The notes beneath the pieces are model-generated. The model had not been told where the DNA came from. It saw nothing but the letters and a program-made list of their open reading frames with translations, and searched no databases. A program made the translations under genes and the position numbers. From positions 4,799,388 to 4,863,387 of the forward strand of contig AP019702.1 in the NCBI GenBank assembly GCA_006739055.1: a stretch of DNA of 64,000 nucleotides, in the 5' to 3' direction. The stretch is from Allostella vacuolata. GTDB lineage: Bacteria; Pseudomonadota; Alphaproteobacteria; ATCC43930; Allostellaceae. This document shows positions 29,972-30,125 of this stretch, piece by piece (within the stretch, counting starts at the first letter, position 1; every line of letters starts with the position of its first letter).

Positions 29972-30125
29972 GTGCCGGGTGGGGGTGGCCACCCCCACCC
30001 GGCACGGACGTGAGGCCGATCGACGAGTTGGCAGGTTGATGCCGGTCCCGAGCAGGGCCGCGTCCGTTGTCCCAAACCCCGAACAGTTGCGTGGGGCGAT
30101 AACCCCGAACTGCAAGCTTGGGAGA
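29972..30125 (+). ncRNA. Predicted bridge RNA of the IS110 element
   Basis: The left end folds as a 5' hairpin plus two internal loops. The hairpin is a perfect 34-base palindrome (29972-30005). Loop 1 has outer stem 30004-30010/30061-30067 and inner hairpin 30028-30033/30040-30045. Loop 2 has outer stem 30070-30075/30118-30123 and inner hairpin 30093-30096/30103-30106. TCCCGAGC (30046-30053) is complementary to the target GCTCGGGA. ACAGTTGC (30083-30090) equals the element's right terminus. TGCAAGC (30111-30117) pairs with the core plus left terminus. The left target guide is not resolved. Ends are approximate. Confidence 0.6.

What the first reader, a model, noticed from the sequence alone, without database searches (positions are those of the whole stretch)
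29972..30125. Left end of the IS folds as a bridge RNA with readable donor and target guides
A perfect 34-base hairpin is followed by two internal loops with closed outer stems (7 and 6 bp) and inner hairpins. In loop 2, ACAGTTGC (30083-30090) is identical to the right terminus (31125-31132), and TGCAAGC (30111-30117) pairs with the core plus left terminus (7 pairs, 2 wobble). In loop 1, TCCCGAGC (30046-30053) is fully complementary to the reconstructed target GCTCGGGA. These matches fall where the bridge RNA model expects the left donor, right donor and right target guides. The left target guide is not resolved: TCGAC (30020-30024) matches the target only one base out of register. This would be a new programmable IS110 recombinase/RNA pair.
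Basis: partly seen in the sequence, partly recalled or inferred. Interest (0 to 1): 0.92.

Follow-up and report, generated by a model that had tools for sequence, protein, structure and literature searches.

The report
REP-targeting IS110 element with bridge RNA
This is a small jumping gene that very likely uses its own guide RNA to pick where it lands, in this case inside a short palindrome repeated well over a hundred times in the host genome; it is a good new example of a known system, and one of its four guide segments does not fit the landing site in the expected way.

Summary
Window 29953-31133 is an IS110-group insertion sequence (recombinase 30132-31121; closest solved structures ISCro4 and IS621), and its left end carries a bridge-RNA-type sequence. 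A covariance model built from 37 relatives, without this element, its sister copy and three others, finds it at 30006-30137 (63.5 bits, E 6e-14; next window hit E 0.16). Over 42 elements the stems covary and right target guides fit their own targets better than swapped ones; donor guides equal right ends in 49 of 51. Here the right target guide pairs 7 of 7, the left donor guide matches 8 of 8, and three of four handshake bases pair. Both genomic copies sit in a host REP palindrome (170 places, reversed-pattern control 0). The left target guide really fails: anchored on the structure it scores at most 3.5 of 9 here and 4 in the sister copy, while 36 of 42 elements reach 6. The shared guide spells a REP with a three-base spacer, as in Sphingomonas; listed host REPs mostly have four. 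The sister copy's right guide is the exact complement of the Sphingomonas-type half. This suggests natural retargeting in progress. New member of a known kind; expression, activity and programmability were not testable here.

The parts
29943..29952 (+). left half of the interrupted REP target (CTCGACTTCG)
   Evidence: joined flanks give CTCGACTTCG-CTCGGGATGAGG; the REP family is at 170 places in the genome with up to 2 mismatches, reversed-pattern control 0
29953..29954 (+). left core dinucleotide CT
   Evidence: shared by both ends; CT cores in the relatives kept (right cores without T were filtered out)
29953..29959 (+). left end and right donor half (CTTGTGT)
   Evidence: CTTGT-type start upstream of the 42 unique elements kept; the start was chosen by motif score
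29963..29968 (+). possible -10 (TAGATT) of a promoter formed only in the circular junction, 18 bp after TTGAAA 31118-31123
   Evidence: read by eye from the joined RE-LE junction; weak, 9 of 12 matches to the recalled consensus; no promoter-like site in the linear copy
29972..30005 (+). 5' stem-loop: perfect 17-bp loopless palindrome
30006..30065 (+). target-binding loop with outer stem (30006-30011/30060-30065 and 30014-30017/30056-30059)
   Evidence: helices 1 and 2 (85.1% and 71.7% of cells paired)
30018..30029 (+). left target guide strand (GATCGACGAGTT); does not fit the actual target in register
   Evidence: 3.5 of 9 at best, sister copy 4.0; 12 of 12 identical in the sister copy
30030..30043 (+). 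hairpin of the target-binding loop
   Evidence: helix 3 (81.4% of cells paired)
30046..30052 (+). right target guide TCCCGAG, pairs 7 of 7 with CTCGGGA
30053..30054 (+). handshake guide of the target loop (CA), pairs donor G7 and T6
   Evidence: sequence; geometry from PMC11208158
30078..30122 (+). donor-binding loop; outer stem CCC 30078-30080 with GGG 30120-30122
   Evidence: helix 4, 100% of cells paired
30083..30090 (+). left donor guide ACAGTTGC, identical to right end 31125-31132
30093..30106 (+). hairpin of the donor-binding loop (GGGG/CCCC)
   Evidence: helix 5, 97% of cells paired
30113..30116 (+). core part of the right donor guide (CAAG, pairs CTTG); nearly invariant in the family, so it gives no covariation
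30117..30118 (+). handshake guide of the donor loop; C30117 pairs target G7, T30118 does not pair target C6
   Evidence: 38 of 42 Watson-Crick at the first position, 3 of 100000 shuffles as good; no such fit at the second position
30132..31121 (+). IS110 recombinase, 329 aa, stop included; D11, E64, D106, D109, S246 align with D11, E60, D102, D105, S241 of IS621
   Evidence: PF01548 84.3 bits, PF02371 65.8 bits; IS621 residue names from PMC11208158
31125..31132 (+). right end and left donor half ACAGTTGC (its last base is the first base of the core)
31132..31143 (+). right core CT and right half of the interrupted REP (CTCGGGATGAGG)
31185..31206 (-). partner REP in inverted orientation, 63 bp from the reconstructed target REP

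Best explanation
The element is an IS110-group insertion sequence. Its left end encodes a bridge RNA, probably transcribed when excision joins right and left ends in a circle (inferred). The second loop of the RNA reads the element's own ends (left donor guide identical to the right end, right donor guide pairing with core and left end). The first loop reads the target, a REP palindrome. The recombinase then joins donor and target at a CT core with no base gained or lost (the joined flanks form an intact REP). Shown by sequence: recombinase family and catalytic residues, ends, REP target in both copies, conserved RNA architecture, three guide matches and three of four handshake matches. Inferred: transcription, RNP formation and activity. 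For the left target guide I think most likely that it is inherited from an ancestor aimed at REPs with a three-base spacer (TCGAC-GAG-CT); at the four-base-spacer REPs of this host it pairs only partly, and the right target guide, handshake and core bases carry most of the specificity. The window copy's right guide has been retuned to the commonest host REP, the sister copy's less so.
For: Family and residues. Second copy (83% DNA, 72% protein) in the same kind of REP. REP family: 170 places with up to 2 mismatches, control 0. Held-out covariance model (37 relatives; window, L010, L071, L070 and L105 left out) finds 30006-30137 with 63.5 bits (it has 9 base pairs over 136 positions, so it is largely a sequence profile). 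Stem covariation. Swap test on 42 unique RNAs, the window among them: right guide own 6.46 of 7 against 4.78, no other target better in 33 of 42; left guide own 7.01 of 9 against 5.90, 18 of 42; 0 of 10000 permutations for each. First handshake base. Donor guide equals right end in 49 of 51 (shuffled mean 14.5). Between the two genomic copies the RNA differs only in one base before the 5' hairpin, the 5' hairpin, the stretches of the two loop hairpins and the right-guide strand, at dS 0.40 in the gene. Retargeting: Sphingomonas REP has a three-base spacer in 32 of 32 matches, host REP four bases in 94 of the 100 listed of 145; L071's left guide fits its REP (7 of 9); the sister copy's right guide scores 7 of 7 on CTCAGGG but 6.5 on its own target, the window copy's 7 of 7 on CTCGGGA.
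Against: No transcript or activity data. Left target guide misfit in both copies; with a free register the best stretch scores 6.0 of 9 for the window (two other targets do better) and 5.0 for the sister copy (rank 21 of 42), at a place that runs into the hairpin. Even with one bulged DNA base the window's match is reached by 2889 of 20000 random flanks, the sister copy's by 476 of 20000. Only two copies, so targeting statistics for this element are n = 2. The other four elements with poor structure-anchored left guides (L145, L131, L122, L123) are not explained by REP spacing. 9 of 42 elements have a right guide below 6 of 7. The second donor-loop handshake position shows no fit across the family. 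Without the palindrome the RNA fold is not significant alone. The permutation tests ignore relatedness of the sequences.
Confidence: 0.93

Rival explanations
1. Bulged-register reading: the left target guide works as it stands, pairing with the two conserved blocks of the host REP (TCGAC, and G plus core) and skipping the hypervariable bases between them through a 2 x 3 internal loop.
For: Guide strand 12 of 12 identical between copies while right guide and hairpins differ; host REPs vary between TCGAC and GCT; the bulged alignment raises the score from 2.5 to 5.5 (window) and 3.0 to 7.0 (sister).
Against: Bulged scores are not rare by chance for the window (2889 of 20000; sister 476 of 20000); IS621 shows low mismatch tolerance (PMC11208160 passages); I tested no element beyond the window, its sister and L071 for such a bulge.
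Confidence: 0.3
2. The left-end structure is only a regulatory hairpin or mRNA leader of the transposase gene; guide matches are coincidence or leftovers.
For: The RNA runs up to the gene start, and the palindrome dominates the folding energy.
Against: Swap test, handshake covariation, donor identity and the held-out model.
Confidence: 0.03
3. The element is a dead relic whose guides have decayed, so the left-guide misfit has no meaning.
For: Two diverged copies only; left guide misfit in both.
Against: Open frames without stops, dN/dS 0.46 between copies and RNA more conserved than the gene, right guide fitting in both copies. dN/dS covers past history, not present activity.
Confidence: 0.12

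Closest known systems
IS621 of E. coli (IS110 group; bridge RNA and cryo-EM structures, PMC11208160, PMC11208158)
   Same: Recombinase family and catalytic residues, bridge RNA in the left end with 5' stem-loop, target loop and donor loop, CT core, REP palindrome as target, guide geometry including handshake positions
   Different: Recombinase sequence distant (phmmer 90.6 bits); REP family, guides and donor differ; 7-base right target guide fit; 5' hairpin is a perfect 34-base palindrome; left target guide does not fit in register
ISCro4 (solved structure 9t56)
   Same: IS110 recombinase, best phmmer match in the PDB
   Different: Only the protein sequence was compared here
IS110 element of Sphingomonas canadensis (L071), and plasmid copies annotated ISMno29 and ISAli16
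   Same: L071 is the nearest relative found outside the host genome (50% protein identity); it also sits in a REP and has a palindromic 5' hairpin; the ISMno29 and ISAli16 copies (L067, L070) share the layout by eye and by the model
   Different: L071's left guide fits its three-base-spacer REP; right guide and hairpins differ
Other REP-targeting ISs (ISPa11, ISPpu9, ISPpu10, ISRm19, ISRm22, ISPsy8; PMC1525189)
   Same: Insertion at a fixed point of a host REP, 100% of copies associated with REPs in that study
   Different: Other REP families and hosts; not compared by sequence here, and several are not IS110-group elements (recalled)

Membership tests
IS110 family, IS110 group | DEDD RuvC-like domain plus Transposase_20 domain with catalytic serine | tested here: met
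   PF01548 and PF02371 above cut-off; D11, E64, D106, D109, S246 aligned to IS621
IS110 family, IS110 group | Long non-coding left end, short right end (IS1111 group has the reverse) | tested here: met
   179 bp from core to ATG against 10 bp from stop to right core
IS110 family, IS110 group | Precise, directional insertion at a short core | tested here: met
   Joined flanks form an intact REP in both copies, same orientation; two copies only
[quoted passage not shown]
Bridge RNA (IS621 type) | Donor loop: left donor guide equals right end, right donor guide pairs core plus left end | tested here: met
   8 of 8, and CAAG/CTTG; left donor guide equals right end in 49 of 51 elements
Bridge RNA (IS621 type) | Target loop: right target guide complementary to right target | tested here: met
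   7 of 7, sister copy 6.5 of 7
Bridge RNA (IS621 type) | Target loop: left target guide matches left target in register | tested here: not met
   3.5 of 9 at best, sister copy 4 of 9; 36 of 42 elements reach 6
Bridge RNA (IS621 type) | Handshake positions pair with the opposite DNA | tested here: met
   three of four: C30053:G7, A30054:T6, C30117:G7; T30118 does not pair with C6
Bridge RNA (IS621 type) | RNA is transcribed and bound by the recombinase; recombination depends on it | not testable with these tools
   needs RNA sequencing, co-purification and recombination assay
REP sequences | Short extragenic palindrome, many copies, often in inverted pairs | tested here: met
   170 places, many listed ones in inverted pairs about 65 bp apart; extragenic position was looked at only for the window copy

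The most novel reading that the evidence does not exclude
The two copies catch a bridge RNA in the middle of natural retargeting between REP families: the left guide still reads an ancestral three-base-spacer REP, one copy's right guide still reads its CTCAGGG half, and the other's has switched to the host's CTCGGGA. Insertion would then be possible with a left guide out of register, meaning that the right guide plus handshake and core bases can suffice, or that a bulged left duplex is tolerated.
Probability: 0.4. Interest if true: 0.6.

Novelty: new member of a known kind. Interest (0 to 1): 0.42.

Why it matters
It adds a recombinase and bridge RNA distant from IS621, with a seven-base right guide fit and a high-copy natural target. 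The misfit left guide in two diverged copies, beside a relative whose left guide fits, is a natural test of how IS110 elements change targets step by step and how much the left target guide is needed, which matters for off-target rules of bridge recombinases.

Tried and rejected
Rfam at gathering threshold: no bridge RNA family hit, only a tRNA. Single-sequence scans of genome and viral contigs found no relatives; an alignment query did. Besides the two own copies, an order-wide protein search (43 genomes, E up to 1e-30) gave two distant matches and a class-wide one (385 genomes drawn from a larger group, E up to 1e-50) two genomes at about 40% identity; 397 genomes of the L071 family at E up to 1e-55 gave only L071's own genome. 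Plasmid DNA search gave 30 records with partial matches, none covering 80% of the query; phage records gave 22 matches, all under 60% identity. A bulged left-guide alignment was tested and is not significant for the window. The idea that the host itself holds many three-base-spacer REPs was tested: 18 against 9 in the reversed control, so no clear family there, but clear excess in G003 (44 against 5), G012 (60 against 0), G015 (42 against 0), G016 (72 against 3) and G023 (86 against 8). A first non-circular donor test had a wrong search pattern and gave zero pairs; repeated with a mended pattern. The linear promoter and terminator scan found nothing.

Rows dropped: of 95 elements handled (80 of the 325 confirmed relatives, the number the tool kept, plus 15 others, the window included; the partial loci L009 and L153 were not used), 70 had a donor 8-mer equal to a right-end 8-mer under my motif (the motif selects for this), 56 had both ends and clean flanks, 42 were unique RNAs. 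Left ends were chosen by a CTTGT-like motif score. L011, whose right-end motif is not followed by T, was not in the 42. In one search, of 95 elements 25 had no donor motif, 5 no right-end motif and 14 were duplicates, leaving 51.

Full report
What is there. Window 29953-31133 is a complete IS110-group insertion sequence, 1179 bp from core to core. The gene at 30132-31121 encodes 329 residues with both IS110 Pfam domains. Its only solved relatives by sequence at E up to 0.001 are ISCro4 and IS621, and the five catalytic residues align (the IS621 residue names are from PMC11208158, passages). The genome (5.83 Mb, one contig) holds one other copy, L002/L010, 83% identical in DNA and 72% in protein. 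PF01548 finds the same two places only.

Target. Joining the flanks gives CTCGACTTCG-CTCGGGATGAGG for the window and TTCGACTGCG-CTCGGGGTGAGG for the sister copy, each with an inverted partner 63 or 65 bp away. The pattern CTCGACNNCGCTCGGGNTGAGG with up to two mismatches occurs at 170 places in the genome and 0 times in the reversed control. It is also frequent in one of three congeners, G002 (79 places), but not in G001 (3) or G003 (6). This is a REP family with inverted pairs. The window copy lies between rpmB (29482-29793, minus) and a MeaB/ArgK-type GTPase gene; both names are my reading of the translations, not a database result.

RNA. In a structure read from the window, 86.2% of 871 cells form standard pairs against 75.0% in shuffles and at most 52.4% in slid versions; 15 of 21 pairs show changes on both sides (shuffled mean 10.8, 3 of 500 as many); covariation score 0.341 against 0.145. 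The structure was taken from one of the sequences and from conserved columns, which favours it over slid versions. A model from 37 of the 42, without the window, its sister copy, L071, L070 and L105, finds the window at 30006-30137 with 63.5 bits, E 5.9e-14; the next window hit has 12.2 bits, E 0.16. That model holds only 9 base pairs, so much of its signal is sequence; L070 scores high partly because its near twin L076 is in the model. It also finds the RNA in L118, L152, L142, L124, L067, L106 and L151 (55.5 down to 22 bits), which were in neither the model nor the 42.

Guides. Geometry was taken from the IS621 structure paper (PMC11208158, passages). Donor: the left donor guide 30083-30090 equals the right end; among 51 elements in which guide and right end were found by separate motifs, the first right-end motif equals the guide in 49, and some motif in all 51; shuffled mean 14.5, 0 of 10000 reaching it (both motifs fix several bases, which raises the shuffled mean). 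Right target guide: own pairing averages 6.46 of 7 against 4.78 for swapped targets, no other target being better in 33 of 42; the structure-anchored count of at least 6 of 7 is also 33 of 42. Handshake: the first donor-loop handshake base pairs with target base 7 in 38 of 42 (41 with wobble), 3 of 100000 shuffles as good; the window, the sister copy, L071 and L123 carry C against G where 34 others carry G against C; the second position shows no such fit. These tests do not correct for relatedness.

The odd part. Anchored on the hairpin, 36 of 42 elements have a left target guide scoring at least 6 of 9. The window scores 3.5 and its sister 4.0; the other misses are L145, L131, L122 and L123 (L123 fits at 7 when the register is free). 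With a free register the window's best is 6.0 and the sister's 5.0, at a stretch that runs into the hairpin, and other targets do better. Allowing one bulged DNA base gives 5.5 (reached by 2889 of 20000 random flanks) for the window and 7.0 (476 of 20000) for the sister. Host REPs have four bases between TCGAC and CTCGGG in 94 of 100 listed places (of 145), five in 5 and three in 1. In Sphingomonas canadensis, host of the nearest outside relative L071, the REP has three bases in 32 of 32 places (reversed control 1), and L071's left guide fits with 7 of 9. The window's guide strand GATCGACGAGTT fits such a three-base REP (TCGACGAG, then the core) in register. The sister copy's right guide CCCTGAG is the exact complement of CTCAGGG, the Sphingomonas-type right half, and scores 6.5 on its own CTCGGGG; the window's TCCCGAG scores 7 on CTCGGGA, the commoner host variant in the listing. 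Three-base REPs exceed the control clearly in G003 of the same genus and in G012, G015, G016 and G023 of the same order, not in the host itself. I read this as stepwise retargeting from one REP family to another. The left guide strand is nevertheless 12 of 12 identical between the copies, while gene dS is 0.40, so it may be functional as it stands.

How it most likely works. Excision would join right and left ends, giving a junction in which TTGAAA and TAGATT lie 18 bp apart (read by eye; weak). The RNA would start near the palindrome. The RNP would read its own ends with loop 2 and a REP with loop 1, and exchange strands at CT. Transcription, RNP formation and activity are inferred from IS621.

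What is known. IS621 itself inserts in E. coli REPs: 144 of 173 experimental sites (PMC11208160, passages). Covariance models predicted a bridge RNA in 85.7% of IS110-group elements (PMC11208160, section 12; section 6 was also read). Deleting the IS621 5' stem-loop weakened RNA binding and slightly reduced recombination (PMC11208158, passages). Other ISs insert in REPs (PMC1525189, abstract and results). Natural reprogramming was described for ISXne4 against ISEc11, the latter of the IS1111 family (PMC11187229, passages). So the system is a new member of a known kind. My paper searches listed nothing that I recognised as this element or as a bridge RNA caught between two REP families, but the library holds only open papers, and I read only the passages and sections named.

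Noticed in passing
29972-30005; L071, L070, L076, L131, L112: The 5' hairpin is a strictly perfect loopless palindrome of 30-46 bases in 6 of 42 elements (five different sequences; L070 and L076 share one) and at most 10 bases in the other 36; 4 of 1943 control windows reach 24, the longest 28. The split is two-peaked, as if hairpins are sometimes made perfect by a copying process. The sister copy's palindrome differs at two bases.
   Followed up: partly
window 19252-19273 (+) and 19318-19339 (-): A second inverted REP pair, 66 bp apart, without an insertion.
   Followed up: no
G000 compared with G001, G002, G003 (same genus): The REP family is at 170 places in the window's genome and 79 in G002, but only 3 in G001 and 6 in G003: REP content seems to change fast within the genus.
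   Followed up: no
L011, about 2.8-3.2 kb: ORF translations show a repeated FNPRTRKGAT / FQSTHPQGCD pattern, which I recall as typical of a type I-C CRISPR array read as protein; it lies near an IS110 relative.
   Followed up: no
L151, L152 (viral contigs): IMG/VR contigs carry IS110 relatives with a model-detected bridge RNA (22 and 52.5 bits).
   Followed up: no
L077, L081-L085, L087, L088: Eight copies of one IS110 element in Roseibium aggregatum with the same target-loop RNA; L077 has a CTTATC left end and an ATGGTTGC donor guide: natural donor variants.
   Followed up: no
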